A DNA stretch of 64,000 bases, taken from positions 12,395,475-12,459,474 of the forward strand of contig CP092872.1 of the NCBI GenBank assembly GCA_030710605.1, in the 5' to 3' direction. A program made the translations under genes and the position numbers. Source of the DNA: Cordylochernes scorpioides (Eukaryota > Arthropoda > Arachnida > Pseudoscorpiones > Chernetidae). Shown here piece after piece: positions 5,975 through 60,734 of this stretch (its first letter is position 1; every line of letters starts with the position of its first letter). The notes under the pieces are model-generated. The model ran no database searches, was not told the DNA's origin, and saw only the letters and a list, made by a program, of their open reading frames with translations.

Positions 5975-6342
5975 CATATTATAGACAAGATATGTATTCA
6001 CATATAAAAATTAATCAGATTGTGTGTTAAATGAGGAATAACAAATTTAAAAAACAAAATAAGAATAAACGTGAAGCACAAGGATTAGCAATGAGTATAA
6101 AAAGCTAAATACGGATAGTTCTTACTAGAATTCTAAGTTTCCATATAACTCGTACCTGATCCCATAGTACACAGTTTCACTTTTCTACTATTTCAAAGTA
6201 TTAGAACTGTTTTCAAATTATATGTCTCTTTTTGGGATTGGAATTAAATGGTAGCGAAGAAATAATTTATATTTTATTATTTAATTATTCAATGAAAATA
6301 TTTAAAAACAGATTTATTATTTTATATTTGTAAAATTATCAT
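5975..6342. other. No feature seen
   Basis: AT-rich sequence matching 18290-18562 and 18963-19010 in copy B. The empty target site for the copy B hairpin element is at about 6279-6292. Confidence 0.5.
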
Positions 6343-6575
6343 TTATGTTTCTTCAAATTAAAGAAATTTCGGCCAGTAAATCTTTTTATTGTCTCGACGT
6401 TTCGACAAAAATATTTTGTTCTCGTCAGGAGCGAACAAAATTTAAAACATTTGGCAAAGCGTTAGAAATTATTCTAAGGCTGCAAGGGCGTTCTCACGCG
6501 ATATTCGAAATTTTGTACAACATCTAAAGCACGAGTCAAAAAAAAAAAACAAATATTTAACTCACAAAAGACTAT
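6343..6575 (-). mobile_element. Hammerhead-bearing insert, only in copy A
   Basis: A stretch of about 230 bp absent from copy B (compare 19000-19030). On the minus strand it carries a complete hammerhead core. A run of A at 6539-6550 lies near one edge. It may be a fragment of a Penelope-like or retrozyme-like element, or copy B may have lost it. Confidence 0.45.
6388..6436 (-). ncRNA. Hammerhead ribozyme motif (type I, short stem III)
   Basis: Read on the minus strand: CUGACGA core (6428-6422), stem II of seven pairs with one bulged A and a UAU loop (6421-6404), GAAA (6403-6400), then CGUC with cleavage expected after C at 6396. Stem III would be the self-complementary ACGU, as in minimal hammerheads that act as dimers. 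Stem I has three clear pairs (CUC with GAG, 6431-6429 and 6395-6393). All conserved core bases are present. Activity is inferred, not shown. Confidence 0.7.
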
Positions 6576-6964
6576 GATTTTTTAAATAAATCATTCAATA
6601 TTCTCTAGCTGTAGATAGTATTGTTGATAATTGTCGACTAGTCGTGCTGACGTTATCAATAAATACGCTTATATCTCAAGATATTCCAAGACTTGATTTC
6701 TAAGCTACAATATTATTAACAAATCTTTATCAGATGAATTTTTCAACTAATTTCATAATCAATTGAAATAAATGTCACATCTCTGCACAAACGCAATTAA
6801 ACTGTAGAAAGCTTTCGTGATAGAAATCCATATTAGATAGAAGTAAATTATTTTCTTCTTCTTTTATTCTTACAATTTATACTTGAGAACTTTGATTTTG
6901 GTATCATTGAAAACAACAACAATAAGAAAAGATCAAATATATTAAATAAACTCTGAGAGAAAAC

Positions 6965-29845: not shown

Positions 29846-29939
29846 AGATCCAATTCTGTCAGAATTAAAACCACAGAGGACCATAACTACCATATCAAAG
29901 CTAGAGAAGATTTCTAGACATGGTATAAGGAGCTAGATA

Positions 29940-31215: not shown

Positions 31216-32148
31216 ATTATTTTTTAAAATTTTAAAATTTTTTTTTTTTCAAATATAATTATATTTATTCTGAATATAGAGCAATCCATAATATATGTAT
31301 ATTTCAAAAATAAGGATTATTTTTTAAATTATATTCATATATAAATATTTTAAATGATTTTTGAAAATGAATTATTTTAAAAAAATTATATAGGGAAAAT
31401 TATTTTTAATTTCTTATAAATTCATTTGCCTATGAGCATTAAAAAAACATGTGAATAAAAGAAATATTGGAATTGAAGATTTTTTTCAAGTTTTCGGTTT
31501 TTTTTGTGTGTTTATGAACATAAACAAAAACAACACAAGCATTAGATATATCATCTTTGATATAGTAAAGATATAATGAATATTTGTAGAAAATGATATT
31601 TAGTGCCATCTATGGGTGAAAATATAAATTAAAATCATTATTAAAGATATTTATTTATGTATTACCAGTTGAACAAATAAGACACGCTATATCCTATCTG
31701 GATAATTGCGGGTGAATAATTCATATTGTAGTAGAGTAGATGTAACAGAATTATCAAAAAGAAAATACACAATTAAGAAACAGAGAATTAAATAAACATA
31801 TTTACATATTAGACAAACGTTACTACTTTTGCGGGTTAACACACAAAAATGGAATAGACTGGGGCCTACAGTAAGAGTGACTTAAACACAGAAAAAGGTA
31901 CACTCAAAAGTATAACACTAACAACAAAAAGGGGGGAAATAAAAAAAAACACGATTTGTTAAATAAAATAAAAACAATACGTATCTTTTATTTGCAGCGT
32001 TGATAAGGAGCCGACCGGGGTTTCACAGTTATGCGAGGAGGTAACCAGAAAAGCTCACAGAGAACGCTTTAAGCATCTCCACTCGAAAACCACTCCACGA
32101 CTCTGTATTTCGTGTTATATTTAAAAGACAAATTTATAAAACCCACAT
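31216..32148. other. No feature seen
   Basis: AT-rich with homopolymer runs. GAATATAGAGCAATCCAT (31272) is the outer word of the AAAAAGGCATATATTGGATC palindrome family. Confidence 0.5.
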
Positions 32149-32183
32149 TAGATCCCGTGTGGATCTCATGGAATAAAGTCCGC

Positions 32184-32227
32184 CCTAGACTGAAGAGGGC
32201 CATTAGCCAGAAACCATGGTCTCTAGG
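32184..32227 (+). ncRNA. Hammerhead ribozyme 1 of the tandem pair
   Basis: CTGAAGA core at 32190-32196, stem II 32197-32209 with loop CAUUA, GAAA at 32210-32213, CCATGG as a minimal self-complementary stem III, then UC; cleavage after C32221. Stem I has six Watson-Crick pairs (32184-32189 with 32222-32227). One flaw: A at 32209 faces G10.1 where the second copy has C. Confidence 0.8.
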
Positions 32228-32503
32228 TGGACGCTTCTCAGCTTGACAAAACTGGTGTTGTGGATTTGTCACCGACCCGAGGCCGCTAGTTTGCGGTGAC
32301 GGTCAATAGATGGCGTCAGATTCTGACGTTTATTTTGACGGGAGAAGCGCCCATTGCTTCTATAGATTAATTTTCTCCCGGCAAATTTTCCATCTATGTT
32401 TTGCCAATAGATTTGGCCCAGCCAAATTGCCAGCAAAACACCTCTTTGGTAGATTGTGAGGATTCCATTAGATCCTGTGTGGATCTCATGGAATAAAGTC
32501 CAC

Positions 32504-32547
32504 CCTAGACTGACGAGGGCCATTAGCCCGAAACCATGGTCTTTAGG
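32504..32547 (+). ncRNA. Hammerhead ribozyme 2 of the tandem pair
   Basis: CTGACGA core at 32510-32516, stem II GGGC/GCCC (32517-32520, 32526-32529) with loop CAUUA, GAAA at 32530-32533, stem III CC-AU-GG, then UC; cleavage after C32541. Stem I of six pairs including one G-U (32504-32509 with 32542-32547). All conserved bases are canonical. Confidence 0.85.
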
Positions 32548-32814
32548 TGGATGCTTCTCAGTTTGCCAAAGCTGTTGTTGTGGCTTTGTCACCGACCTGC
32601 TAGTTTGCGGCGACGGTCAATAGATGGCGTCTAGCTTTGACGTATATTTTGACGGGAGAGGTTACCTTTGTCTTTGTAGATCAATAGTCTCCCGGCAAAA
32701 TTTCCATCTATATGAATATATCATTCTATAATTATAAAGTAATAACTCGACATCTCTTTATAGGAAATCAAAACATTAAAGCACTAATGTTTCTTTTACT
32801 ATTTCCTTTTTTTA

Positions 32815-33025
32815 TTATCCCTAGTACACGTGGTACAGGCCATGATAATCATGGTGGGTAGTTATCAACTGCTTTTACTGTAAGTTCACCACATGTCTAC
32901 ACATGTGAAAAGCAATTCGAATTTGCACTTACAAATGTGTCAGAGTCCCATTTGGTTACTTGCACTCGCTGGTGGTGTTGGACTTTTGAAAGAATCGGGG
33001 GCCATTGAAGATTTTTTTTTCTTTT
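32815..33025 (-). mobile_element. SINE, head missing
   Basis: Body matches the other SINE copies (TAGTACACGTGGTACAGGCC, CACCACATGTCTACACATG, ACTCGCTGGTGG, AATCGGGGGCCATTGAAG) but stops at a T-run before the tRNA-like head. Confidence 0.6.
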
Positions 33026-33430
33026 AATAGTAAAAGAAACACATTCGTACTTTAATGTGCTTTTTTATATCATATTTTAGTGTTTGTAGAAATTTGTATT
33101 CAACACAAAAATGGTCCTAGTAATGATGATAATATCATATGTTTTCAAAGATAATCCTTTTGAGAATATGATCGGTACACACAATAGTATATGAAAAAAC
33201 GAAAGAAAAGAATAAAAGATTAAAAGATCAGGTGCTGAAATCAAAAATAAAAATGGCATATCCTGACCAGGAGCACATGTGCTTTACAGAAGGCAGAGCG
33301 CCATCTGGTGGAACAGAAATCAACTAAACATTGATTTAGCCTGTTCCCTGATATTTGGCCAATACAATACTATATAGAAAATCATTACTAAATACTAGCC
33401 ATTATGTAAATAGAAATTTTATGTAAATTT
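33026..33430. other. No feature seen
   Basis: AT-rich, with a small GC-rich patch at 33265-33310 that includes GCGCCATCTGGTGG. Confidence 0.45.
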
Positions 33431-34612: not shown

Positions 34613-34865
34613 TTTTATTTTCATCATTGAGATTATTCTTTTATTTTTAAACATAGATTTAGAATACTTTGAAAATTGTTGTAAATATGTATAGTTAACC
34701 TACCTATTTTTAAATTCACGAATATAGGATTCATTTTAAAAATTCTATATTACTGTGAAAAATAATTTCAAGCGTAATTTGCTTCAATAAAATTACTTGA
34801 AAACTTTCTCCATAGATTGTATAAACGATAAAGAAGAGTAAGGAGAAAAGATTTTTATTCAATTA

Positions 34866-34910
34866 AACTTGTGACAAGCTTTCGGGCAGTCACGCCCTTC
34901 AACAGGTAAT
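34866..34910 (-). ncRNA. Hammerhead-like core in left Penelope arm
   Basis: Minus strand: CUGUUGA, A, GGGC-GUGACU-GCCC, GAAA, GCUUGUC, then ACAAG. Stem II and GAAA are sound. The first core reads CUGUUGA where CUGANGA is expected. Confidence 0.5.
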
Positions 34911-35033
34911 AAAAAGAACAATTGACTATTAAAATAGGAAACAAACTGAGCTTTAAACAAAAATGATACAACTGCAGCCTGGCCGCGAGAAAACGTGAAT
35001 TCGGGAAAGTAATGTGAGGTGGGGGGGGGGGGT

Positions 35034-35288
35034 TTATCCGGTTTTTAAGTTAATACATATATCATGATATTGGTTAGGTAAATCTATATGTCGATTAATA
35101 CTGTCATTAGAAATGGATAAAATGGCCTCTATGATTAATCTCTGGTGTTTACTGGGAATGTTATTGTACAAGGTGGTGGGAGAATCTAAATTGAAAGAAT
35201 GGCCAGTATTATGGTTGTGGTTGTATATGAAGGATCTGCGGTCTTTATTATTGATGCACCTACCATGTTCGATCATCCTGATGGCCAC
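35034..35288 (-). pseudogene. GIY-YIG endonuclease C-terminal part (left arm)
   Basis: 84-codon frame, AIRMIEHGRCINNKD ... GHSFNLDSPTTLYNN ... YHDICINLKTG. Nearly identical to the last half of the right-arm copy but lacking the VYS and YIG motifs, because about 210 bp are deleted at the palindrome centre. Confidence 0.75.
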
Positions 35289-35326
35289 GGATCTACAGGT
35301 ATTTCTATGGGCTGTAACCCCTACAG

Positions 35327-35833
35327 TTGAAACCCCTTACAGCCCATAGAAATACCTGTATTTTGCCTTTTTCATCACAATCCGCTACCATATCCCGCAT
35401 GCTTAAATCCCACGGTATCAATACTTATTTTAAAAATAATAGAAGTCTGGTCACCATTCTTAGACATCCCATTACCCGCATACAGAGACCTACCACTATT
35501 CGATCTTCTGGTGGCGCGGTCTATTCAGTCTCATGTAACGATTGTAGTGCAACCTACATAGGTGAGACAGGTAGATCCGTGGCCATCAGGATGATCGAAC
35601 ATGGTAGGTGCATCAATAATAAAGACGGCAGATCCTTCATATACAACCACACCCATAATACTGGCCATTCTTTCAATTTAGATTCTCCCACCACCTTGTA
35701 CAATAACATTCCCAGTAAACACCAGAGATTAATCATAGAGGCCATTTTATCCATTTCTAATGACAGTATTAATCGACATATAGATTTACCTAACCAATAT
35801 CATGATATATGTATTAACTTAAAAACCGGATAA
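35327..35833 (+). pseudogene. Penelope-like GIY-YIG endonuclease domain (right arm)
   Basis: 168-codon frame. VYS at residues 65-67 and YIG at 77-79 are the paired motifs of GIY-YIG nucleases; C70/C73 fit the CxxC finger typical of Penelope endonucleases; R83, R88 and E91-H92 follow, then GHSFN near the usual H-x-F region. In Penelope-like elements this domain follows the RT and nicks the target. Here RT is absent and the first ~20 residues come from the palindrome centre, so the frame is a truncated end, not a whole gene. The TAA at 35831-35833 is the same stop as in the left arm. Confidence 0.8.
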
Positions 35834-35959
35834 ACCCCCTCCCCCCCCCCCCACCTCACATTACTTTCCCGAATTCACGTTTTCTCGCGGCCAGGCTGCA
35901 GTTGTATCATTTTTGTTTAAAGCTCAGTTTGTTTCCTATTTTAATAGTCAATTGTTCTT

Positions 35960-36008
35960 TTTATTACCTGTTGAAGGGCGTGACTGCCCGAAAGCTTGTC
36001 ACAAGTTT
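35960..36008 (+). ncRNA. Hammerhead-like core in right Penelope arm
   Basis: CTGTTGA at 35968-35974, A, GGGC, loop GTGACT, GCCC, GAAA at 35990-35993, GCTTGTC, then ACAAG. Cleavage would be after C36000. Position 6 is U rather than A. Hammerheads in the pLTRs of Penelope-like elements are established. Confidence 0.55.
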
Positions 36009-36176
36009 AATTGAATAAAAATATTTTCTCCTTATACTTCTTTATCGTAATTTGCTTCAAGTTATTCAAAATAAAAACTACTTGATGGGTAAATAATTAT
36101 ATTTCTTTTTTCACGACTGCACCTTCAATTTTCTATATTTTTCAACAACAAAACAAAATATACATAACATGTATAT

Positions 36177-37157: not shown

Positions 37158-37530
37158 TGTCACAGTAATGAAGGTGACGAGTCGTTTGGGTAGAATAAAA
37201 TAATAATTTATTAGATGACTTTAAATAGTTAATAAGTTTGAGGGATAAAAAGAAATAGAGGTAAACTAAGTTAAATGGATAAAAATAATGGTAAATTAAG
37301 GAAGTAATGTCAGAGACCCAAACGGCTGGCTTTCGGCTACACCCCTCAAGATGGCGACTATTGTTTACAAACTTTCCGCCTAGCGCGCCCGCCATCTATC
37401 GGAGCTTAAGTACATAACACTTGCCGAGCTGACAGCGCGCGCCACCTATCGGGGCTTAGGTACATAACATTCGCCAAGCTGCCGATGTATTATTTACAGT
37501 TACAAGCTATGTACATTTTTGGTTATGACA
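37158..37530 (-). repeat. Gypsy 3' LTR
   Basis: 373 bp; same sequence as 42348-42720. Contains GCCATCTATCGG and GCCACCTATCGG words. Confidence 0.92.
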
Positions 37531-37546
37531 TTACTCCCCTTTTCAA
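37531..37546 (-). promoter_or_regulatory. Polypurine tract
   Basis: AAAAGGGGAGTAA on the minus strand immediately before the LTR; primes plus-strand DNA synthesis. Confidence 0.75.
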
Positions 37547-37599
37547 AAATAAGCAGCGACCCGCTGCTTAAAAAAAAAAAAAAATTCTACACTATGTGA

Positions 37600-40500
37600 T
37601 CAGTCCTGTGTTTGTTCTTCTGGGCTTCTGTATGGTTTCATCCGCAGGACGTGGACGATGTCTTTGATATTCCGTTGTCTGGGTCTCCTCTCCAAGGCCT
37701 CTACTTCATAAGTTACTTCAGACAGTTGTCTCACAACTTTATAGGGGCCGAAGTATCTTTTAAGTAGCTTCTCCGACAGTCCTTGTTTACGCACAGGTGT
37801 GTACACCCACACAAGGTCTTCCGTGCGGTACTGGACAGGTCTATGGCTTTTGTCGTATCGAGATTTGTCTTTTTCTTGCGCCTTTAAGATGTTCAAACGG
37901 GCCAGCTGGCGTGCGTCCTCGGCATTTGTGACCAAACTCTCCACGTAGTCTTCCAGATTGGCTTCCTCTCTATACGTCAGGATGGTGTCCAATGGGGTCT
38001 CGACATCGCGTCCGTGTACAAGATAGAAAGGGCTAAACCCGGTGGTTTCCTGTTTGGCGGTGTTATAGGCAAAAGTTACGTAAGGGAGAACTGAATCCCA
38101 GTTTCTTTGGTCTACATCAACATACATAGACAGCATGTCACCAAGTGTCTTGTTGAGTCTCTCGGTCAGGCCATTTGTCTGGGGGTGGTAGGCAGAAGTA
38201 AAGCGATGTGCGGTTCCACAGAGGTTGTTAATATCCCGTATTGTGTGGGATATAAACGTTCGACCTCGGTCTGAAATCAATTCTCTGGGGGCTCCATGTT
38301 TGAGGATCACGTCTTCTACTATAAATTTTCCAACTTCTTCCGAACTTCCATTTGGTATGGCTTTGGTCATAGCATACCTTGTTAGATAGTCTGTCGCGAC
38401 CACGGTCCATTTATTGCCATCGTTCGAGGTAGGGAATCTTCCTAACAAATCTATCCCTATTTTCTCAAAAGGTCGGGATACCGGCGGAATTGGCACAAGT
38501 TGCCCTGGTGGACGTTCGGTAGAACCTTTTCGCCGTTGACATTCTCGACAATGTGCCACATATTGTCGCACAGATCTATGCAAGCCGGGCCAGAAATACT
38601 TTCTTCTAACGCGGTCGTATGTTTTGGCAAATCCCAGGTGTCCCGCCATTGGTGCATCGTGGGCTTCCCTCAAAATGTCAACCCTCATTTGTTTGGGCAC
38701 TACTAAGAGCCAAGGTTTGCCCATGGGATCGTAGTTTTTGCGGTAGAGGATGCCGTCGATTATTTTGTATCCACTTTCACTTTTGGAATCAATTTCCTGA
38801 ATTATTTTTTTGGTCTGGACATCGCTTCTTTGCTCTTTTCTTATGTCGGTAATTGAAGACAATTCTGGTATGTTATCTTCGTTGGATTGGGGGAGAGGAT
38901 TTCTTGAGAGGCAATCCGCATCTTGGTGTCTTTTACCATTCTTATACACAATAGATATGTCGAACTCTTGAAGTCGCAAGGCCCATCTGGCTAGCCTTCC
39001 CGATGGATCCTTTACATTAGCTAGCCAACACAGGGAATGATGGTCGGAGACGACGGTGAAGTGTTTTCCAAACAAATATGGTCTGAACTTGTAAATGGCC
39101 CAAACTACAGCTAGGCATTCCCTCTCCGTCGTGGAATAATTTCTTTCTGCGGCGTTAAGTGTTCTTGATGCATAGGCGATAGGCTTTTCTTTTCCTTCTA
39201 CCAGTTGGGTCAACACTGCTCCGACGCCATATCCACTCGCGTCGGTATGTACAAGTGTCTCAGCATCTTCTTTAAAATGGCCAAGCACAGGATCGGTAGT
39301 TAGGGCTGATTTTAATATTTGGAAAGATTGTTCTTGTTCGTTCGACCAAAAGAACTTCACGTTATTCCTCAGGAGGTCGTGCAACGGCTTTGCTTTATTT
39401 GCAAAATCTTTCACAAATCGCCTGTAATATGAACACAACCCCATGAAGCTTCTTACTTCAGTTGTTGTTTTTGGAGTCGGGAAATTTGTAATTGCTTCGA
39501 TTTTGTCGGGATCAGGGCGAATGCCGCTTTCTGTAACAAGATGTCCTAACACTTTGATTTCTCTTGACCCAAAACGGCACTTCTCATGATTAATACACAA
39601 GCCTGCTTGCTGGATGCATCTGAGAACTTTCCCTAGGCGTTCAATGTGTTCTTTAAAGGATGTAGCATAAACAATTATATCGTCTAAATAACAAAGACAA
39701 ATTGTCCATTTCAATCCTGCTAGTAGCTTGTCCATCATTCTTTCGAATGTTGCCGGTGCGTTGCATAAACCGAAGGGCATCACCCGGAACTCATATAAGC
39801 CATCAGGGGTGATGAAAGCTGTCTTCTCCCGATCTTCCTCGTCGATTTCTATCTGCCAGTATCCTGTACGTAGATCCATGCTGGAAAAGAATTTAGCTCC
39901 TGTTAAGCTATCCAAAACATCATCATTTCTAGGTAAAGGATACACATCCTTTTTGGTGACCTTGTTAAGCTTTCGGTAGTCTACACAAAATCTCCAGGAC
40001 CCATCTTTCTTTTTAACCAAAACTACTGGGGACGACCAAGGACTTTCGGACGGTTGTACAATTCCCATCTTCATCATTTTATCGACTTCACTTTGTATAG
40101 CTCGTCTTTCGACAGGAGACACCCGGTATGGTCGTTGTTTAATAGGACGGCTGTCTGAAGTGTCGATTTTATGTTTCACATTGGAGGTTGTACTGAATGA
40201 TTTTCTATCAAAATCAAAAACCTCTGAGTACTTTTCTAAACATTCTGCAATCATTGACTTTTGTTCTTCGTTTAATCTCTCGTCTACCAGAGATAAGATT
40301 TGTTGGCGTCTATCTTCATTCTTAATGTTTGATTGAGTTTTATCGTCTTCAGCTGTGTCAACACTGTAGATTCCGCTACTTCCAATTTTCCTCAAGTATC
40401 CTACAAGCATACCAGCTGGGATTATTTGATTCTGAGAAGTCCCATTAGTTACCCATATCTCCCCTCTGCCGTGATGGAAGTTAATTATGGATGATGGTAT

Positions 40501-41004
40501 GACCAATTCTTTTTTTAAGATGAGATCTTTGCTTCCTTCTATCATTAGATCTTTTCCACCTCGAATATCTTCGTTAATAACCGTGATTTTCTTAATTGAG
40601 CGAGCTGGAACAAAACAGTCTTCTAACGCATGTGTAGGCAGATCTTCTTCTAGGCCGTCGTTCACACTTTCCTTCAAATGTATTTCACCTCTTCCGCAAT
40701 CAATCACTGCACTTGTGGCTCGAAAGAAATCAAGACCAAGTATTATGTGATGGCTACATTCAGAGAAGACAACAAAAGTAAAATAAATCTCAAGTTCTTC
40801 AATTGACACTTTTAAGTTGCATCGTCCCAGAGTTTCGATGTGTTTCCTATTGGCGACTCTCAGTACAGGCCCTTTTTCTGCAAAGAACGGAATTTTCAAA
40901 TATCGGCGAAAACTTTCCGAGATTACGGAATAATCGGCTCCAGAATCGACTAAGGCCTCAACATTCTGTCCATTTATGGTGATAACAACGTAGTTCCGTT
41001 TCAT
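37600..41004 (-). CDS. Pol polyprotein of Gypsy element
   Basis: 1134 codons from the first ATG, but the frame is open upstream to the frameshift site at 41079-41085, so the natural product is Gag-Pol. Order protease-RT-RNase H-integrase is Ty3/Gypsy. Protease LVDSGAD (D20). RT: SMDLRTGYWQI and MPFGLCNAPATF, with YLDD at residues 439-442. RNase H: HTDASG (D588) and ERECLAVVWA. Integrase: HHCC finger starting near H782 (HDAPMAGHLG...HCRECQRRKG), then the DD35E triad D852, D912, E948. A GPY-type segment (RYFGPYKVV) lies near the C-terminus. No stop or frameshift is seen and all catalytic residues are present, so the enzyme set is probably functional. Confidence 0.93.
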   Translation of the reverse strand: MKRNYVVITINGQNVEALVDSGADYSVISESFRRYLKIPFFAEKGPVLRVANRKHIETLGRCNLKVSIEELEIYFTFVVFSECSHHIILGLDFFRATSAVIDCGRGEIHLKESVNDGLEEDLPTHALEDCFVPARSIKKITVINEDIRGGKDLMIEGSKDLILKKELVIPSSIINFHHGRGEIWVTNGTSQNQIIPAGMLVGYLRKIGSSGIYSVDTAEDDKTQSNIKNEDRRQQILSLVDERLNEEQKSMIAECLEKYSEVFDFDRKSFSTTSNVKHKIDTSDSRPIKQRPYRVSPVERRAIQSEVDKMMKMGIVQPSESPWSSPVVLVKKKDGSWRFCVDYRKLNKVTKKDVYPLPRNDDVLDSLTGAKFFSSMDLRTGYWQIEIDEEDREKTAFITPDGLYEFRVMPFGLCNAPATFERMMDKLLAGLKWTICLCYLDDIIVYATSFKEHIERLGKVLRCIQQAGLCINHEKCRFGSREIKVLGHLVTESGIRPDPDKIEAITNFPTPKTTTEVRSFMGLCSYYRRFVKDFANKAKPLHDLLRNNVKFFWSNEQEQSFQILKSALTTDPVLGHFKEDAETLVHTDASGYGVGAVLTQLVEGKEKPIAYASRTLNAAERNYSTTERECLAVVWAIYKFRPYLFGKHFTVVSDHHSLCWLANVKDPSGRLARWALRLQEFDISIVYKNGKRHQDADCLSRNPLPQSNEDNIPELSSITDIRKEQRSDVQTKKIIQEIDSKSESGYKIIDGILYRKNYDPMGKPWLLVVPKQMRVDILREAHDAPMAGHLGFAKTYDRVRRKYFWPGLHRSVRQYVAHCRECQRRKGSTERPPGQLVPIPPVSRPFEKIGIDLLGRFPTSNDGNKWTVVATDYLTRYAMTKAIPNGSSEEVGKFIVEDVILKHGAPRELISDRGRTFISHTIRDINNLCGTAHRFTSAYHPQTNGLTERLNKTLGDMLSMYVDVDQRNWDSVLPYVTFAYNTAKQETTGFSPFYLVHGRDVETPLDTILTYREEANLEDYVESLVTNAEDARQLARLNILKAQEKDKSRYDKSHRPVQYRTEDLVWVYTPVRKQGLSEKLLKRYFGPYKVVRQLSEVTYEVEALERRPRQRNIKDIVHVLRMKPYRSPEEQTQD

Positions 41005-41075
41005 GTTCGCAGTTATAATAGGGGGAGGATTTCTACTATCGTCAGCGGCCTTACCTCCAGTCTCGGTCGCTCTTC

Positions 41076-42254
41076 TTAGTTTCCCTGGCTTAGGCGGCGA
41101 GGAGATTGACTGGATCGGCGAGAGGGCGACGGCGTTGCGTTTCGTCTTGAGGGGGATCTTCCACGGCCAGGATAGGGCGACGGGTTTCGAAAGCGGCGAT
41201 CTACAAACTCAACTTCTTCGGCATTTTGATTGAACCAGGTATTGTAATTATTAGAGTAGGTCGGCCTTCTTACCCTGGCTTCCTCGAAAACACGCCTTCT
41301 GTCCCGGCAATATCGGGCTACATGTCCTGGGCGACCGCAATGGAAACATATTGGAACGTTTTCGTGTGTCCTCCATTCATCAGTTCTTCTCTGTGGTGAT
41401 GTCTGGTTGAGTACCGGTGGTCTTTGGTTCAGGAACTGCTGTCGTGGCGTCTGTTTGAATATTTGGGGTCGGTTAGAGTACTGTTGTCGTGGCATTGACC
41501 TTTGAACGGGCTGCGAAATTGCAGACAGGTTCCTTTCAACTTCCTCTCGGATAATTAGATCCAGGGAAGATGGTTTGAGAGTGGCTGGCTCGGGATTCAA
41601 TGCATGGTAGATTTCTTCTCGGACGATACGTCTAATGAGGTCCTCCATAGATTCCGATTCTGCTGGGTTGATGGCGGCAGCATTCGGCAGTCTATCAAAA
41701 ACTATCCGCGTGTTCACACGCTTCTTTTGAGATAGTTCGATTTTTCGACACCACCTTATAAACTCCTCGGTGGTGGCAATTTCAAAGGTGACAATTGCCC
41801 TGTAAATTTCCTCAGAGACCCCCTTGACTAAATGAGCAACTTTCTCGTTTTCATTCATGTTGGGGTTAATTTGCCGGCATAAATAGAGGACGTCTTGAAT
41901 ATACGCCTCACTAGACTCTCCCTTTCCTTGGGCCCTGGCTTTTAGTTTTTCTAAAACCTGGTCTTTTTCGCTGGCGTGATGTCCAAAGGCCTGAGACAAC
42001 ATTGTCTCAAAAAGTTCCCATGAGGTTATTTGTTCCTCTACATTCTCGAACCAGACTTTGGCCGTTCCTGAGAGGAAGAAGTAAACATTCGCCAGGCACA
42101 TGGAACTGTCCCAGCAGTTGAACCGAGCTACACGATGGTACTCTTTCAACCATTTCTCCGAGCTTTGGCCCGGTTCCCCCGAAAATATAGAAGGGTTTCT
42201 AATATGTTTGAAGTGGTACTCACCCTGTGGGGTCTCTCTTCCTTCGTGTTGCAT
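41076..42254 (-). CDS. Gag of Gypsy element
   Basis: 392 codons from the first ATG (42254); the same frame is open upstream to 42353 and into the LTR, so up to 33 more residues (with RRSRRIQGLNP) might be translated from a non-ATG start. The middle has a Gag capsid-like helical region (IFSGEPGQSSEKWLKEYHRV, SGTAKVWFENV, LCRQINP..NENEKVAHLVKG). A single zinc knuckle CFHCGRPGHVARYC (CCHC) near the end binds RNA. The tail is rich in R, S and P. TAA stop at 41076-41078, directly after the slippery heptamer. Confidence 0.88.
   Translation of the reverse strand: MQHEGRETPQGEYHFKHIRNPSIFSGEPGQSSEKWLKEYHRVARFNCWDSSMCLANVYFFLSGTAKVWFENVEEQITSWELFETMLSQAFGHHASEKDQVLEKLKARAQGKGESSEAYIQDVLYLCRQINPNMNENEKVAHLVKGVSEEIYRAIVTFEIATTEEFIRWCRKIELSQKKRVNTRIVFDRLPNAAAINPAESESMEDLIRRIVREEIYHALNPEPATLKPSSLDLIIREEVERNLSAISQPVQRSMPRQQYSNRPQIFKQTPRQQFLNQRPPVLNQTSPQRRTDEWRTHENVPICFHCGRPGHVARYCRDRRRVFEEARVRRPTYSNNYNTWFNQNAEEVEFVDRRFRNPSPYPGRGRSPSRRNATPSPSRRSSQSPRRLSQGN
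41079..41085 (-). promoter_or_regulatory. -1 ribosomal frameshift heptamer, gag/pol
   Basis: On the minus strand G GGA AAC is followed at once by the gag stop TAA. It fits X XXY YYZ exactly. Slipping back one base puts ribosomes in the pol frame, which is open from here through the pol ATG. A downstream stem or pseudoknot was not worked out. Confidence 0.75.
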
Positions 42255-42347
42255 CTTAGAATATTCCAATGGGTTTAATCCTTGGATTCTACGACTTCTT
42301 CTTATAGCTTGGGCAGCGAAGGGATGATCCAGCTTGTCTCCACCAGA

Positions 42348-42720
42348 TGTCACAGTAATGAAGGTGACGAGTCGTTTGGGTAGAATAAAATAATAATTTA
42401 TTAGATGACTTTAAATAGTTAATAAGTTTGAGGGATAAAAAGAAATAGAGGTAAACTAAGTTAAATGGATAAAAATAATGGTAAATTAAGGAAGTAATGT
42501 CAGAGACCCAAACGGCTGGCTTTCGGCTACACCCCTCAAGATGGCGACTATTGTTTACAAACTTTCCGCCTAGCGCGCCCGCCATCTATCGGAGCTTAAG
42601 TACATAACACTTGCCGAGCTGACAGCGCGCGCCACCTATCGGGGCTTAGGTACATAACATTCGCCAAGCTGCCGATGTATTATTTACAGTTACAAGCTAT
42701 GTACATTTTTGGTTATGACA
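42348..42720 (-). repeat. Gypsy 5' LTR
   Basis: 373 bp, same as 37158-37530. The sequence just inside on the minus strand reads TCTGGTGGAGACAAGC, where the primer-binding site should be; the tRNA is not identified. Confidence 0.92.
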
Positions 42721-43014: not shown

Positions 43015-44392
43015 TGTTGGGACACCTCGTGACCATAATGTGCCAAAGTAACCCAGAACCCCACCTAACCTAACCATATCCCACCTTTGTCCATTTAAGT
43101 TACCAACCTCTGGTGATTGCGAGGTGTTGAGATGGAGCCTGAAGCCACCTTTAGCCCTGGCAGCACTGAGCCAGAGACCGAGATCCCCTTCCTGTAATCA
43201 AGTCACCTGACCTGTGGTGGATGACCTGGCCCCACCAACACCAGGATAGTCCAAGATGGACTCAGACACCCCTTCCTGGTGGTCAAGACACCTGACCTAT
43301 GGTGGATGACCTGGCCCCACCAACACCAAGCTAGCCTGAGATGGACTCAGACACCCCTTCCTGTTAGTCGAGCCACATGTCCGATGGTGGCCGACTTGAC
43401 CACAAACCAGTCCAAGATGGACCCAGACACCCTTTCCTGTAGTCAAGCCACAGACCTATGGTGCTTGACCTGGCTCCACCATCTTCATGCAGAGCACCAG
43501 CTCCACCACGAGCCCTGAACCTTTCCCAAGCTGACCCCAAGATGCCCAGATCCTACAATATTAATTGTTTTTTTTTTTAATTCAATATTTTGGTATTTTT
43601 ATTTTATTATTTTGTGAATATTTCTTTAATAATTTTATATTTAATTTATTTTTATCATTTTTTAAGATGCCTTTTTATTTTTTTTATTTTCATAGAGAGA
43701 AAGGTGATGATAGCTTGGGGGGGTGAGTTCAGCAACACTGGGAGAAGGAAGCGGGATATTTACATTCTTGAAGATTGACAATTTTGATATTGACATTCGG
43801 ATTTTTACATTTTTTTAAACAAAAATTAGATTTTTTTTTCGAGAAGCAAAAAAGACTTGGAGTTGCGGAGGGCGAAGGCCGCTGGCTGCGGCCTTGCCTG
43901 CCCCTTTTCGAATCATGGACATGGGTGGCTAGATGACGAGGTAGGTGGGGACATAATGGGACTTTGGCATAATAGGCCTTTTTTTTTTCTTTTGTATAAA
44001 GTTTAAAACTCCTCCCTTTTAACCTTATCTGCAGTTTTTTTTTTCTTAAATATATATATTTTTAATCTTATATGCGCGTGATATTATTCAAGTATTTTTT
44101 CTTTGTAGTGCATTGAAAATTTATTTTATTAGAATAAATAAAATATGTTTAACCAAAAAATTGATTGGTTAATTTCCCCATCAACATAATTGCTAGCCGG
44201 CACAGCTTTAGGTCTCTACATGTGCCATAGATGAATAAATTTGTGGTCTGCTTTTCTGCAGCCACTGGCGCCCTAATATTTGGACATGTAGAGATCTGGA
44301 AATAGTAAAAGTATAAAATCATCATTGTTTTTAACAATGACTTTCTTCTTCCATTATACAAAAAAAATTATGAAATGCTCTCGAACTCATCA
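43015..44392 (+). repeat. 5' LTR of noncoding element
   Basis: 1378 bp. Contains an imperfect ~80-bp tandem repeat at 43189-43520 (ACCTATGGTGGATGACCTGG, AGATGGACTCAGACACCCC; about four units) and a GC-rich segment at 43850-43950. Confidence 0.85.
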
Positions 44393-47859: not shown

Positions 47860-49237
47860 TGTTGGGACACCTCGTGACCATAATGTGCCAAAGTAACCCA
47901 GAACCCCACCTAACCTAACCATATCCCACCTTTGTCCATTTAAGTTACCAACCTCTGGTGATTGCGAGGTGTTGAGATGGAGCCTGAAGCCACCTTTAGC
48001 CCTGGCAGCACTGAGCCAGAGACCGAGATCCCCTTCCTGTAATCAAGTCACCTGACCTGTGGTGGATGACCTGGCCCCACCAACACCAGGATAGTCCAAG
48101 ATGGACTCAGACACCCCTTCCTGGTGGTCAAGACACCTGACCTATGGTGGATGACCTGGCCCCACCAACACCAAGCTAGCCTGAGATGGACTCAGACACC
48201 CCTTCCTGTTAGTCGAGCCACATGTCCGATGGTGGCCGACTTGACCACAAACCAGTCCAAGATGGACCCAGACACCCCTTCCTGTAGTCAAGCCACCGAC
48301 CTATGGTGCTTGACCTGGCTCCACCATCTTCATACAGAGCACCAGCTCCACCACGAGCCCTGAACCTTTCCCAAGCTGACCCCAAGATGCCCAGATCCTA
48401 CAATATTAATTGTTTTTTTTTTAATTCAATATTTTCGTATTTTTATTTTATTTTTTTTGTGAATATTTCTTTAATAATTTTATATTTAATTTATTTTTAT
48501 CATTTTTTAAGATGCCTTTTTAATTTTTTTATTTTCATAGAGAGAAAGGTGATGATAGCTTGGGGGGGTGAGTTCAGCAACACTGGGAGAAGGAAGCGGG
48601 ATATTTACATTCTTGAAGATTGACAATTTTGATATTGACATTCGGATTTTTACATTTTTTTAAACAAAAATTAGATTTTTTTTTCGAGAAGCAAAAAAGA
48701 CTTGGAGTTGCGGAGGGCGAAGGCCGCTGGCTGCGGCCTTGCCTGCCCCTTTTCGAATCATGGACATGGGTGGCTAGATGACGAGGTAGGTGGGGACATA
48801 ATGGGACTTTGGCATAATAGGCCTTTTTTTTTTCTTTTGTATAAAGTTTAAAACTCCTCCCTTTTAACCTTATCTGCAGTTTTTTTTTTCTTAAATATAT
48901 ATATTTTTAATCTTATATGCGCGTGATATTATTCAAGTATTTTTTCTTTGTAGTGCATTGAAAATTTATTTTATTAGAATAAATAAAATATGTTTAACCA
49001 AAAAATTGATTGGTTAATTTCCCCATCAACATAATTGCTAGCCGGCACAGCTTTAGGTCTCTACATGTGCCATAGATGAATAAATTTGTGGTCTGCTTTT
49101 CTGCAGCCACTGGCGCCCTAATATTTGGACATGTAGAGATCTGGAAATAGTAAAAGTATAAAATCATCATTGTTTTTAACAATGACTTTCTTCTTCCATT
49201 ATACAAAAAAATTTATGAAATGCTCTCGAACTCATCA
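47860..49237 (+). repeat. 3' LTR of noncoding element
   Basis: 1378 bp, nearly identical to 43015-44392. Confidence 0.85.
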
Positions 49238-53477: not shown

Positions 53478-56400
53478 GTGTCCTGGTGGTGGTGACCTGG
53501 TAGTGCCGTGGTGGTGACTTGGTAGGACCGTGGTGGTGGCCTTATAGGACCGTGGTGGTGGCCTTATAGGACCGTGGTGGTGGCCTTATAGGACCGTGGT
53601 GGTGCCTTATAGGACCGTGGTGGTGACCTTATAGGACCGTGGTGGTGGCCTTATAGGACCGTGGTGGTGGCCTTATAGGACCGTGGTGGTGACCTTATAG
53701 GACCGTGGTGGTGGCCTTATAGGACCGTGGTGGTGACCTTATAGGACCGTGGTGGTGACTTGGTAGGACCGTGGTGGTGACCTTATAGGACCGTGGTGGT
53801 GACCTTATAGGACCGTGGTAGTGATCTAATAGGACCGTGGTGGTGATCTAATAAGACCGTGGTGGTGACCTTATAGGACCGTGGTGGTGACCTTATAGGA
53901 CCGTGGTGGTGACCTTATAGGACCGTGGTGGTGACCTTATAGGACCGTGGTGGTGATCTAATAGGACCGTGGTGGTGACCTTATAGGACCGTGGTGGTGG
54001 CCTTATAGGACCGTGGTGGTGACCTTATAGGACCGTGGTGGTGGCCTTATAGGACCGTGGTAGTGATCTAATAGGACCGTGGGGGTGACCTTATAGGACC
54101 GTGGTGGAGACCTTATAGGACCGTGGTGGTGGCCTTATAGGACCGTGGTGGTGGCCTTATAGGACCGTGGTGGTGGCCTTATAGGACCGTGGTGGTGGCC
54201 TTATAGGACCGTGGTGGTGACCTTATAGGACCGTGGTGGTGACTTGGTAGGACCGTGGTGGTGACCTTATAGGACCGTGGTGGTGATCTTATAGGACCGT
54301 GGTGGTGACCTTTAGGACCGTGGTGGTGACCTTATAGGACCGTGGTGGTGACCTTATAGGACCGTGGTGGTGACCTTATAGGACCGTGGTGGTGACCTTA
54401 TAGGACCGTGGTGGTGACCTTATAGGACCGTGGTGGTGACCTTATAGGACCGTGGTGGTGACCTTATAGGACCGTGGTGGTGATCTTATAGGACCGTGGT
54501 GGTGACCTTATAGGACCGTGGTGGTGATCTTATAGGACCGTGGTGGTGACCTTATAGGACCGTGGTGGTGACCTTATAGGACCGTGGTGGTGATCTTATA
54601 GGACCGTGGTGGTGACCTTATAGGACCGTGGTGGTGACCTTATAGGACCGTGGTGGTGACCTTATAGGACCGTGGTGGTGATCTTATAGGACCGTGGTGG
54701 TGACCTTATAGGACCGTGGTGGTGACCTTATAGGACCGTGGTGGTGACCTTATAGGACCGTGGTGGTGATCTTATAGGACCGTGGTGGTGACCTTATAGG
54801 ACCGTGGTGGTGATCTTATAGGACCGTGGTGGTGACCTTATAGGACCGTGGTGGTGACCTTATAGGACCGTGGTAGTGACCTTAAAGAACCGTGGTGGTG
54901 ACCTTATAGGACCGTGGTGGTGGCCTTATAGGACCGTGGTGGTGACCTTATAGGACCGTGTTAGTAACCTTATAGGGACCGTGGTAGTGACCTTAAAGAA
55001 TCGTGGTGGTGACCTTAAAGGACCGTGGTGGTGACCTTATAGGACCGTGGTGGTGACCTTAAAGGACCGTGGTGGTGACCTTATAGGACCGTGTTAGTAA
55101 CCTTATAGGACCGTGGTGGTGACCTTATAGGACCGTGGTGGTGACCTTAAAGGACCCGTGGTGGTGTCTTATAGGACCGTGTTAGTAACCTTATAGGACC
55201 GTGGTAGTGACCTTATAGGACCGTGGTGGTGACCTTATAGGACCGTGGTGGTGGACTTATAGGACCGTGGTGGTGACCTTATAGGACCGTGGTGGTGACC
55301 TTATAGGACCGTGGGTGGTGACCTTAAAGAACCGTGGTGGTGACCTTATAGGACCGTAGTGGTGTCCTTATAGGACCGTGTTAGTAACCTTATAGGACCG
55401 TGGTAGTGACCTTAAAGAACCGTGGTGGTGACCTTAAAGAACCGTGGTGGTGACCTTATAGGACCGTGTTAGTAACCTTATAGGACCGTGGTGGTGACCT
55501 TATAGGACCGTGGTGGTGGCCTTATAGGACCGTGGTGGTGACCTTATAGGACCGTGGTGGTGTCTTATAGGACCGTGTTAGTAACCTTATAGGACCGTGG
55601 TAGTGACCTTAAAGAACCGTGGTGGTGACCTTAAAGGACCGTGGTGGTGACCTTATAGGACCGTGGTGGTGTCTTATAGGACCGTGTTAGTAACCTTATA
55701 GGACCGTGGTAGTGACCTTAAAGAACCGTGGTGGTGACCTTAAAGGACCGTGGTGGTGACCTTATAGGACCGTGGTGGTGACCTTAAAGAACCGTGGTGG
55801 TGACCTTAAAGGACCGTGGTGGTGTCTTATAGGACCGTGGTGGTGCCCTTATAGGACCGTGGTAGTGACCTTAAAGAACCGTGGTGGTGACCTTAAAGGA
55901 CCGTGGTGGTGACCTTATAGGACCGTGGTGGTGACCTTATAGGACCGTGGTAGTGACCTTAAAGAACCGTGGTGGTGACCTTAAAGGACCGTGGTGGTGA
56001 CCTTAAAGGACCGTGGTGGTGACCTTATAGGACCGTGGTGGTGTCTTATAGGACCGTGTTAGTAACCTTATAGGACCGTGGTAGTGACCTTAAAGAACCG
56101 TGGTGGTGACCTTAAAGGACCGTGGTGGTGACCTTATAGGACCGTGGTGGTGACCTTAAAGAACCGTGGTGGTGACCTTAAAGGACCGTGGTGGTGTCTT
56201 ATAGGACCGTGGTGGTGCCCTTATAGGACCGTGGTAGTGACCTTAAAGAACCGTGGTGGTGACCTTAAAGGACCGTGGTGGTGACCTTATAGGACCGTGG
56301 TGGTGACCTTATAGGACCGTGGTGGTGACCTTAAAGGACCGTGGTGGTGACCTTAAAGGACCGTGGTGGTGACCTTATAGGACCGTGGTAGTGACCTTAT

Positions 56401-58440
56401 AGGACCGTGGTGGTGACCTTATAGGACCGTGGTGGTGACCTTATAGGACCGTGGTGGTGACCCTTAAAGGACCGTGGTGGTGACCTTAAAGGACCGTGGT
56501 GGTGACCTTATAGGACCGTGGTGGTGACCTTATAGGACCGTGGTGGTGACCTTATAGGACCGTGGTGGTGACCTTATAGGACCGTGGTGGTGACCTTAAA
56601 GGACCGTGGTGGTGACCTTATAGGACCGTGGTGGTGACCTTAAAGGACCGTGGTGGTGACCTTATAGGACCGTGGTAGTGACCTTATAGGACCGTGGTGG
56701 TGACCTTATAGGACCGTGGTGGTGACCTTATAGGACCGTGGTGGTGACCTTAAAGGACCGTGGTGGTGACCTTATAGGACCGTGGTGGTGACCTTATAGG
56801 ACCGTGGTGGTGACCTTATAGGACCGTGGTGGTGACCTTATAGGACCGTGGTGGTGACCTTAAAGGACCGTGGTGGTGACCTTATAGGACCGTGGTGGTG
56901 ACCTTATAGGACCGTGGTGGTGACCTTATAGGACCGTGGTAGTGACCTTAAAGGACCGTGGTTAGACCTTATAGGACCGTGGTGGTGACCTTATAGGACC
57001 GTGGTGGTGACCTTAAAGGACCGTGGTGGTGACCTTATAGGACCGTGGTGGTGACCTTATAGGACCGTGGTGGTGACCTTATAGGACCGTGGTAGTGACC
57101 TTAAAGGACCGTGGTGGTGACCTTATAGGACCGTGGTGGTGACCTTATAGGACCGTGGTGGTGACCTTATAGGACCGTGGTGGTGTCTTATAGGACCGTG
57201 TTAGTAACCTTATAGGACCGTGGTAGTGACCTTAAAGAACCGTGGTGGTGACCTTAAAGGACCGTGGTGGTGACCTTATAGGACCGTGGTGGTGTCTTAT
57301 AGGACCGTGTTAGTAACCTTATAGGACCGTGGTAGTGACCTTAAAGAACCGTGGTGGTGACCTTAAAGGACCGTGGTGGTGACCTTATAGGACCGTGGTG
57401 GTGACCTTAAAGGACCGTGGTAGTGACCTTATAGGACCGTGGTGGTGACCTTAAAGGACCGTGGTGGTGACCTTATAGGACCGTGGTGGTGACCTTATAG
57501 GACCGTGGTGGTGACCTTAAAGGACCGTGGTGGTGACCTTATAGGACCGTGGGTGGTGACCTTATAGGACCGTGGTGGTGACCTTAAAGGACCGTGGTGG
57601 TGACCTTATAGGACCGTGGTGGTGACCTTAAAGGACCGTGGTGGTGACCTTATAGGACCGTGGTGGTGACCTTATAGGACCGTGGTGGTGACCTTATAGG
57701 ACCGTGGTGGTGACCTTATAGGACCGTGGTGGTGACCTTATAGGACCGTGGTGGTGACCTTATAGGACCGTGGTGGTGACCTTATAGGACCGTGGTGGTG
57801 ACCTTATAGGACCGTGGTGGTGACCTTATAGGACCGTGGTGGTGACCTTATAGGACCGTGGTGGTGACCTTATAGGACCGTGGTGGTGACCTTAAAGGAC
57901 CGTGGTGGTGACCTTATAGGACCGTGGTAGTGACCTTATAGGACCGTGGTGGTGACCTTATAGGACCGTGGTGGTGACCTTATAGGACCGTGGTGGTGAC
58001 CTTAAAGGACCGTGGTGGTGACCTTATAGGACCGTGGTGGTGACCTTATAGGACCGTGGTGGTGACCTTATAGGACCGTGGTGGTGCCTTATAGGACCGT
58101 GGTGGTGACCTTATAGGACCGTGGTGGTGACTTGGTAGGACCGTGGTGGTGACCCTATAGGACCGTGGTGGTGACCTTATAGGACCGTGGTGGTGACCTT
58201 ATAGGACCGTGGTGGTGACCTTATAGGACCGTGGTGGTGACTTGGTAGGACCGTGGTGGTGACCTTATAGGACCGTGGTGGTGACCTTATAGGACCGTGG
58301 TGGTGACTTGGTAGGACCGTGGTGGTGACCTTATAGGACCGTAGTGGTGACCTTATAGGCAGTGGTGATGACCTGGTAATGCCGTGGTAGTGACTTGGTA
58401 GGACCGTGGTGGTGACCTGGTAGTGCCGTGGTGGTGACCT
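53478..58440 (+). repeat. 22-bp minisatellite, first block (~5 kb)
   Basis: About 225 units of GGACCGTGGTGGTGACCTTA+TA. Variants (GACTTGGTA, GATCTAATA, GTTAGTAACC, CTTAAAGAACC) cluster in zones; GTTAGTAACC followed by GGTAGTGACCTTAAAGAACC recurs many times between 54960 and 57350, which is higher-order structure. 22 bp is not a multiple of three and the unit puts stops in the frames, so it is noncoding. Confidence 0.97.
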
Positions 58441-58716
58441 TGTGGTGTTTAAGCAATTACACTCACATAAATAATTTCTTGCAAAATCAAGCCTTTTATT
58501 AGAATCACTACACCGCTATGGTTATTTTGTTCAGGCAACCAACAGAATGAGAGGCAGAATAACAATAATAATAATTCAATCAAATAGGAAAATATATATA
58601 TATAATTTAGACAATAAAAATTTTGCATATTTGCAACAAACAAATATGATTTTTTTAAAAACAATTAAAATTACATAACACAGAAATACCAAAGAATAAT
58701 TTACATATCCCCTACA
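58441..58716 (-). repeat. 3' LTR of deleted element
   Basis: Preceded on the minus strand by a purine tract GGAAGGGGAGTGA (58717-58730). Confidence 0.88.
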
Positions 58717-60408: not shown

Positions 60409-60453
60409 TTTATCAGTTCGTCGTGCTTGTTCTTCTGTCCGGCTCACCAGTTT

Positions 60454-60734
60454 ATGTGGTGTTTAAGCAATTACACTCACATAAATAATTTCTTTCAAAA
60501 CCAAGCCTTTTATTAGAATTACTATGGCTACACCGCTATGGCTATTTTGTTCAGGCAACCAACAGAATGAGAGGCAGAATAACAATAATAATAATTCAAT
60601 CAAATAGGAAAATATATATATAATTTAGACAATAAAAATTTTGCATATTTGCAACAAACAAATATGATTTTTTTAAAACAATTAAAATTTACATAACACA
60701 GAAATACCAAAGAATAATTTACTTGTCACCTACA
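60454..60734 (-). repeat. 5' LTR of deleted element
   Basis: 281 bp. Just inside on the minus strand is ACTGGTGAGCCGGACAGAAG, at the expected primer-binding position. Confidence 0.88.

What the first reader, a model, noticed from the sequence alone, without database searches (positions are those of the whole stretch)
32149..32708. Tandem hammerhead retrozyme-like element with a 320-nt monomer
Seen: two direct copies, each with CUGANGA, a GGGC/GCCC stem II, GAAA, a self-complementary CCAUGG stem III and a six-pair stem I. Cleavage sites after 32221 and 32541 lie exactly one repeat apart. Known: retrozymes and related animal repeats are noncoding tandem units whose transcripts self-cleave and circularise, moving with help from other retroelements. 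Inference: this locus can yield a ~320-nt circular RNA. Nothing here encodes a mobilising protein, so the helper is an open question; the Penelope-like element 2 kb away is a candidate.
Basis: partly seen in the sequence, partly recalled or inferred. Interest (0 to 1): 0.88.

Follow-up and report, generated by a model that had tools for sequence, protein, structure and literature searches.

The report
Hammerhead retrozyme with Penelope-style insertion scars
A short repeat whose RNA is expected to cut itself and close into a circle has spread through this animal genome, and its insertion scars match those of Penelope-like retrotransposons, which points to the long-sought helper enzyme that copies such circles into DNA.

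Summary
The window holds two direct copies of a 320-nt unit (32146-32711), each with a type I hammerhead; cleavable bases are 32221 and 32541. A paired-stem descriptor found only these two in 64 kb and none in 161 shuffles; Rfam missed them. The unit fits metazoan retrozymes. Its genome (2.62 Gb) has 9,251 exact matches to the ribozyme core.

Other copies show how it inserts. Of 40 insertion groups, 26 are head-to-head with 3' ends outward. Those ends sit at two sites 30 nt apart. In a position-ordered sample, all 37 close end pairs used one site on one arm and the other site on the other. Both arms share template variants. Two-sided inserts usually have target duplications of about 12 nt, mostly in (AT)n; one-sided inserts, this one included, lack them.

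Penelope-like elements in this genome, one of them 2 kb away, show the same head-to-head form, paired start sites and duplications. Best reading: Penelope-type machinery copies one RNA circle from both ends of a cut. Helper family, circle and cleavage are inferred, not shown.

The parts
32146..32711 (+). retrozyme insertion, one-sided (single arm), 1.8 units, 5' end at monomer position 245 and 3' end at the T site; no target duplication found
32146..32465 (+). unit 1 (320 nt)
32466..32711 (+). unit 2, 3' part missing
32184..32227 (+). type I hammerhead of unit 1, stem II with G-A mismatch beside the core; cleavable base 32221
32504..32547 (+). type I hammerhead of unit 2, intact; cleavable base 32541; stem III read here as A-U and C-G closed by the palindromic loop CAUG
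32222..32541 (+). predicted monomer between the two cleavage sites (320 nt), strongly self-paired
32340..32379 (+). predicted hairpin GGGAGA/TCTCCC whose loop holds start site S (monomer 146, window 32367)
32368..32397 (+). 'tail' stretch between start site S (monomer 146) and start site T (monomer 176), the two places where copies elsewhere in the genome end
34788..36045 (.). Penelope-like element piece, head-to-head: '-' arm with tail (left), '+' arm without tail (right); GIY-YIG-like endonuclease fragment 35318-35833 (+); no reverse transcriptase frame of 55 aa or more recognised here, while a longer family member (L066) has one
34773..34787 (.). left target duplication of the Penelope-like insertion (15-nt match, may include 2-3 nt of microhomology)
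36046..36060 (.). right target duplication of the Penelope-like insertion
6388..6428 (-). hammerhead-like motif of a second Penelope-like family (match to that family spans 6340-6601)

Best explanation
This is a diverged, one-sided copy of a large family of non-LTR hammerhead retrozymes. Family transcripts cut themselves at the hammerhead, probably as a pair of ribozymes because stem III is very short with a palindromic loop, and the monomers of about 320 nt are closed into circles (inferred). Insertion is made by Penelope-type machinery. The endonuclease cuts both strands of AT-rich DNA about 12 nt apart (inferred from the duplications). Both 3' ends then prime reverse transcription on one RNA circle, one at site S (monomer 146) and the other at site T (monomer 176). 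Each primer can run round the circle more than once, which makes tandem units. The two cDNA arms are joined head to head at a variable point, mostly with a few bases of overlap. If only one side is primed, the result is a single arm without target duplication, as in the window. Shown from sequence: motif, copy number, two fixed 3' ends, S/T exclusivity, target duplications, shared template variants, same signature in Penelope-like elements of the same genome. Inferred: cleavage, circularity, and the enzyme that acts.
For: Ribozyme: 2 descriptor hits in the window, 0 in 161 shuffles; 9,251 exact matches in the genome to a 32-letter core pattern with one free position, 0 for the reversed control; core residues intact in 149 of 158 units. 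Fixed ends: 52 of 59 outer 3' ends fall in the S or T windows (27 of 320 positions, windows set after seeing the ends, about 5 expected), 0 of 11 outer 5' ends do. Architecture: 25 of 40 insertion groups head-to-head, 1 doubly so, 14 single-arm. S with T: 19 of 23 head-to-head groups with both ends readable; in a position-ordered sample on contig C1 (100 T places, 57 S places in the same range), 37 of 37 neighbouring end pairs within 4 kb are S with T, all outward (19 T-..S+, 18 S-..T+), and 0 of 20,000 label shuffles reach this; the other 83 ends have no partner in the lists. Genome-wide T ends at (AT)n 1,521 and S ends 1,238, reversed controls 0; one other monomer position before (AT)n 0. 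Target duplications of 10 nt or more in 20 of 23 two-sided loci, six of them in sequence that is not a plain AT run; 12 of 13 single-arm groups have 6 nt or less. One template: 142 variants fixed in all units of both arms against 4 arm-specific ones, 367 others, 25 loci. Penelope-like family of the window: reverse transcriptase by Pfam in a full-length frame (L066, RVT_1 E=1.7e-10); 24 of 24 close pairs head-to-head, exactly one tail in 13, both in 0, neither detected in 11; S with T in 11 of 13 loci, 12 fetched and the window's; target duplications of 13-18 nt in 10 of 12. A purified Penelope-like protein starts reverse transcription at two adjacent internal sites, cuts and extends both strands and prefers AT-rich DNA (PMC11167929).
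Against: No sequence similarity beyond short chance matches between the retrozyme and the Penelope-like piece in the window, so the helper family is not named. Targets differ: (AT)3 or longer in the flanks of 28 of 37 retrozyme loci but 3 of 12 loci of that Penelope-like family. In (AT)n targets a duplication cannot be told from the repeat: flanks of different loci match over a median of 10 nt there. Four of 23 readable head-to-head groups are not S+T, and two of 13 Penelope-like loci are not (L054, L056). L034 holds an inner '+-' joint. No covariation beyond shuffles in 103 rows. For 23 of 85 units the nearest relative is at another locus. The hammerhead-like motif of the Penelope-like family has U at a core position. 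No RNA data: cleavage, circles and the acting enzyme are not shown. A linear multimer of identical units could also serve as template. LINE copies of this genome were not examined.
Confidence: 0.83

Rival explanations
1. A LINE-type retrotransposon mobilises the retrozyme; the head-to-head copies are ordinary 5' inversions by twin priming.
For: Head-to-head joints with microhomology and target duplications are also made by LINE machinery (general knowledge); the literature names LINEs or PLEs as possible helpers (PMC7229834; PMC11722881, passage).
Against: Twin priming by LINEs starts the inverted arm at scattered internal sites (general knowledge), whereas here both outer ends are fixed and exclusive. 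By eye there is no constant A-rich tail at the ends. The Penelope-like family of the window shows the same pattern, and the 'tail' signature is called unique to PLEs (PMC11167929 abstract). LINE copies of this genome were not examined.
Confidence: 0.08
2. The head-to-head pairs move as DNA, for example as inverted-repeat transposons cut by a transposase.
For: The two outer ends are inverted copies of each other and carry target duplications.
Against: 27 head-to-head joints fall at 27 different pairs of monomer positions; unit number per arm varies from under one to many; single arms exist without duplications; the two ends are not equal but S and T.
Confidence: 0.03
3. Arms arise by self-priming: the cDNA end folds back and copies itself, as proposed for bdelloid Penelope elements on an antisense template.
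For: Proposed for head-to-head Penelope copies with palindromic joints (PMC3846280, passages); both arms carry the same variants here.
Against: Fold-back should give two arms with equal outer ends (inference); here the ends differ as S and T in 37 of 37 pairs, and arm lengths differ.
Confidence: 0.05
4. The repeat is a passive satellite; the hammerhead is a relic and the copies spread by recombination or DNA circles.
For: A long array exists, more than 7 kb in L021; the window copy is decayed, its two units differ by 11.7% in the segment compared.
Against: Thousands of dispersed matches with an intact core, fixed ends and target duplications.
Confidence: 0.04

Closest known systems
Metazoan non-LTR retrozymes (coral, mussel, axolotl; Cervera and de la Pena 2020, PMC7229834, parts 1-4 of 6 read)
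   Same: Tandem units of about 300 nt, type I hammerhead, GC below 50%, strongly self-paired monomer, thousands of copies; a very short stem III with a tetraloop, palindromic as in one axolotl family.
   Different: Not compared letter by letter with those retrozymes, whose sequences were not at hand. The parts read describe tandem repeats and target duplications but not head-to-head pairs, two fixed 3' ends or the S/T rule.
Penelope-like elements (Poseidon of Anolis, PMC11167929, parts 1-2 and passages; Penelope of Adineta vaga, PMC3846280, passages)
   Same: Two adjacent start sites with a 30-40 bp 'tail' between, both strands cut and extended, AT-rich targets, head-to-head copies, target duplications (8-10 bp in the bdelloid), hammerhead near the start sites.
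   Different: The retrozyme has no RT or endonuclease frame, has a hammerhead with full stems I and II, a 320-nt unit, and sits in (AT)n more often than the Penelope-like family of the window.
Plant LTR retrozymes (PMC4918200, search listing only; summary passages in PMC7761336)
   Same: Non-autonomous, hammerhead, RNA circle.
   Different: Type III hammerhead, LTR, PBS and PPT, 4-bp duplications, Gypsy-type helper; here type I and longer duplications; PBS and PPT were not searched for.
LINE/SINE pairs with 5' inversion (recalled)
   Same: Non-autonomous element uses another element's enzyme; inverted joints.
   Different: Fixed and exclusive pair of 3' ends, no constant A-rich tail by eye.

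Membership tests
Metazoan non-LTR retrozyme | type I hammerhead with intact core and stems | tested here: met
   copy 2 intact, copy 1 with one mismatch; 149 of 158 units with intact core residues; 9,251 exact core matches. Rfam did not detect it. The loop-loop contact of canonical ones was not tested.
Metazoan non-LTR retrozyme | unit of about 170-400 nt, in tandem from dimers upward | tested here: met
   320 nt, 1.8 units here; 319-nt spacing and arrays elsewhere. In the first 100 core places only 3 neighbours are one unit apart, so many insertions hold one intact core.
Metazoan non-LTR retrozyme | GC below 50% and strongly self-paired | tested here: met
   GC 0.47; fold z-score -5.8, 0 of 100 shuffles. 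No covariation support.
Metazoan non-LTR retrozyme | no coding capacity for a mobilising protein | tested here: met
   no frame of 150 aa or more over the element; longest stop-to-stop frame over it 115 aa; these short frames were not searched against families
Metazoan non-LTR retrozyme | self-cleavage and circular RNA in tissue | not testable with these tools
   no RNA data or bench
Penelope-type insertion (mechanism, not membership) | two fixed 3' start sites about 30-40 nt apart | tested here: met
   for the retrozyme; for Penelope-like elements here
Penelope-type insertion (mechanism, not membership) | head-to-head copies with target duplications at AT-rich DNA | tested here: met
Penelope-like element (membership) | RT plus GIY-YIG open frame | tested here: not met
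   no frame of that length in the unit; so it works like a PLE client, it is not a PLE
Penelope-like element, for the neighbour at 34788-36045 and its family | RT and GIY-YIG in one frame | tested here: met
   family member L066 has an 802-aa frame with RVT_1 at E=1.7e-10, above cut-off; the GIY-YIG match of the window's fragment is weak (E=0.032, below cut-off)
Plant LTR retrozyme | type III hammerhead in LTRs with 4-bp duplications | tested here: not met
   type I order of core and stems; duplications of 10 nt or more in 20 of 23 two-sided loci

The most novel reading that the evidence does not exclude
Animal retrozyme circles are clients of Penelope-like proteins. Each two-sided insertion is made on one RNA circle, and the two target strands must use different start sites, one S and one T. 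The same one-S-one-T rule holds for Penelope-like elements themselves and explains their optional 'tail'.
Probability: 0.72. Interest if true: 0.82.

Novelty: new member of a known kind. Interest (0 to 1): 0.7.

Why it matters
Which enzyme moves animal retrozymes has been open; PLEs were named as strong candidates from co-occurrence and shared features (PMC7229834). Insertion scars are direct traces of the machinery, and here they carry a pattern described as unique to PLEs (PMC11167929). The one-S-one-T rule suggests a concrete model, a paired enzyme with two adjacent starts on one RNA, that can be tested in vitro with a protein that has already been purified. It also gives a test that can be run on any genome with retrozymes.

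Tried and rejected
Rfam at gathering score and at E up to 10 found no hammerhead. A loose core pattern in the window was not significant. The core pattern found nothing in viral contigs. Target duplication at the window locus: none. Covariation over 103 rows: none beyond shuffles, and paired columns vary as much as unpaired ones. Similarity between retrozyme and the window's Penelope-like piece: only short chance matches. Search for the helper family: several Penelope-like families differ in the stem around the start sites (read by eye); none was shown to be the helper. A solved structure for the Penelope-like protein: none at E 0.01. Host species: not determined; the impression of a chelicerate-like Gypsy element is recalled and untested. 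LINE copies were not examined.

Dropped or doubled rows: L021, L041 and L033 were left out; L021 also from the within-locus counts; L041 from the summary counts; loci cut by the end of the fetched stretch were left out of end counts and. L038/L041 and L026/L033 share flanks; searches count them separately (L038 and L041 have different inner joints, which I cannot explain). L021 counts as two single-arm groups because its array was split, and one of them is a 'single-arm group'; L018 has N in one flank. The 37 fetched loci were chosen by similarity to the window; the lists show the first 100 places; one search allowed one mismatch but its list shows exact matches only, so diverged tails count as absent.

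Full report
What was claimed.

The observation. The copies are there: 132 nt at 92% identity and then 113 nt at 82%, spaced 320 and 314 nt. The insertion runs from 32146 to 32711, so the second copy lacks about 70 nt. Both copies have the type I order of parts, and the cleavable bases are 32221 and 32541. One detail is wrong: stem II of copy 1 is GGGC/GCCA, with a mismatch beside the core; only copy 2 has GGGC/GCCC. Stem III is read here as A-U and C-G closed by the palindromic loop CAUG. Axolotl ribozymes with a comparably short stem III cleave better as dimers (PMC7229834), so a dimer is likely here (inferred).

Chance. A descriptor that requires the core and the pairing of three stems found exactly these two places in 64 kb on both strands and none in 161 shuffles. 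Rfam missed them, and a loose core motif alone would not have been significant. The monomer 32222-32541 folds far better than shuffles (z -5.8, 0 of 100) and its circular fold pairs 66% of bases. The opposite strand folds as well. Among 103 rows there is no covariation beyond shuffles, so the structure rests on the fold and the motif, not on covariation.

The family. The window lies in a 2.62-Gb genome of 24 contigs. A search with the element gave 71 matches; 40 of 11,291 first-look candidates were scored. A 32-letter ribozyme core pattern with one free position has 9,251 exact matches, the reversed control none. Core residues are intact in 149 of 158 units from 38 loci.

How copies are built. 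I fetched 37 further loci and mapped them and the window on the monomer. Of 40 insertion groups 25 are head-to-head, one (L034) is doubly so and therefore holds one inner '+-' joint, and 14 are single arms, two of which are halves of the long array L021. The outward 3' ends fall at two places, S near monomer 146 and T near 176: 52 of 59 ends, with about 5 expected for windows of that width, which I set after seeing the ends; outward 5' ends are scattered, 0 of 11 in those windows. Of 23 head-to-head groups with both ends readable 19 have one S and one T end (L038 and L041 share flanks). The 27 inner joints are at 27 different pairs of positions; 23 of 27 overlap, mostly by 1-6 nt, and 4 have extra bases.

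That sample was picked by similarity, so I tested the rule on lists in order of position. T ends at (AT)n number 1,521 in the genome and S ends 1,238, with no match for the reversed controls and none for one other monomer position. On contig C1, in the range covered by both lists (100 T and 57 S places), 37 neighbouring pairs lie within 4 kb: 19 are T- then S+, 18 are S- then T+. There are no T-T pairs, S-S pairs or inward pairs, and no label shuffle of 20,000 reaches this. The other 83 ends have no partner in the lists; their partners may lie outside (AT)n, have diverged, or be absent. The first 100 core places on C1 agree: within 2 kb there are nine '-+' neighbours, three same-strand neighbours 319 apart and no '+-'; one '+-' lies at 2,683 nt.

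Targets. Two-sided loci carry target duplications of 10 nt or more in 20 of 23 cases. Most lie in (AT)n, where flanks of different loci also match over a median of 10 nt, so these prove little; six lie in other sequence with 12-14 nt (L020, L024, L027, L038, L039, L043). Outside (AT)n, flanks of different loci match over a median of 5 nt, at most 8. Twelve of 13 single-arm groups have 6 nt or less, the window among them. Flanks contain (AT)3 or longer in 28 of 37 loci, against 9.5% of background stretches.

One template per insertion. In a 160-nt segment, units of one arm, and units of the two arms of one locus, differ by a median of zero, while different loci differ by 3.8%. Over full, distinct units the medians are 1.3% and 4.1%; for 62 of 85 units the nearest relative is in the same locus, and for 23 it is not, mostly in more diverged loci whose units resemble young copies. 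In 25 two-armed loci 142 variants are fixed in all units of both arms, 4 are arm-specific and 367 are other. This fits one RNA copied several times from both sides. A circle is the simplest way to copy one unit many times; a uniform linear multimer is not excluded.

The Penelope-like comparison. The piece at 34788-36045 is a truncated, head-to-head insertion with a GIY-YIG-like fragment (E=0.032, below Pfam's cut-off). A longer member of the same family, L066, has an 802-aa frame with a reverse transcriptase above Pfam's cut-off (E=1.7e-10) ahead of that fragment. The left arm of the window's piece carries a tail of about 36-39 nt, its right arm does not, and a 15-nt match flanks it. A 36-letter stretch of this family, which includes a hammerhead-like motif, has 795 exact matches. 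In the first 100 places all 24 close pairs are head-to-head; 13 have exactly one tail, none has two, and in 11 no exact tail was found, which can be divergence. Of 13 loci read 11 are S with T, the exceptions being L054 and L056, and 10 of 12 have duplications of 13-18 nt. The motif has U in place of A at one core position, so its activity is doubtful. Other Penelope-like families are present.

Literature. In PMC11167929 (parts 1 and 2 of 4, plus passages) a purified Penelope-like protein starts reverse transcription at two adjacent internal sites, cuts and extends both strands and prefers AT-rich DNA; the stretch between the starts is the 'tail' of genomic copies. It reports no difference in start site between top and bottom strands; here either strand can use either site, but the two strands of one event differ. 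PMC3846280 (passages only) describes head-to-head Penelope copies, short target duplications and a tail on one arm, and proposes self-priming. PMC7229834 (parts 1-4 of 6) names PLEs as strong candidates for moving retrozymes. Searches of the held library showed, in their listings, no paper on retrozyme insertion ends; only four of the listed papers on retrozymes or PLEs besides PMC7229834 were opened, and papers outside that library were not searched.

Mechanism and what is shown. Shown: motif, copy number, fixed ends, exclusivity, duplications, shared template, same pattern in Penelope-like elements. Inferred: cleavage, circle, enzyme. The exclusivity suggests that two enzyme subunits sit on one RNA and each starts at its own site. 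The retrozyme hairpin GGGAGA/UCUCCC with S in its loop and T about 15 nt after it resembles the hairpin of the Penelope-like family in layout, not in sequence; this likeness was read by eye and is weak evidence.

Verdict. The element is a new member of the metazoan retrozymes; the copy in the window is an ordinary, diverged, one-sided member. The interest lies in the insertion scars, which tie the family to Penelope-type machinery and make the helper question testable.

Noticed in passing
window 37385-42671: A Ty3/Gypsy-type LTR element on the - strand with long open frames (pol 37600-41208, gag 41076-42410) between two copies of a 97-nt stretch 5,190 nt apart.
   Followed up: partly
window 43185-43481 and 48030-48326: An array of an 85-nt unit occurs twice, 4,845 nt apart, perhaps the ends of another element.
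   Followed up: no
window 53486-63998: A minisatellite of a 22-nt unit over 10.5 kb, with open frames at 58846-60045 that look retroelement-like to me but matched no Pfam family at E 0.001.
   Followed up: no
window 32773-33058: An inverted repeat (arms 25 nt, 236 nt apart) just downstream of the retrozyme, perhaps a small DNA transposon; similar short peptide strings occur near 29918 and 34000 (by eye).
   Followed up: no
window 6340-6601: Fragment of a second Penelope-like family (92% to L059) with a hammerhead-like motif that keeps the usual core letters.
   Followed up: partly
L061 positions 245-328 (contig C20): A near-perfect palindrome of 84 nt, perhaps from the 3' part of a third Penelope-like family.
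   Followed up: no
L021 (contig C5, 71.47 Mb): A long one-direction retrozyme array of more than 7 kb that reaches the end of the fetched stretch.
   Followed up: no
L038 and L041 (contig C11, 52.57 and 52.50 Mb): Two retrozyme insertions with the same flanks and target duplication but different inner joints, as if one site were duplicated and then rearranged, or hit twice.
   Followed up: no
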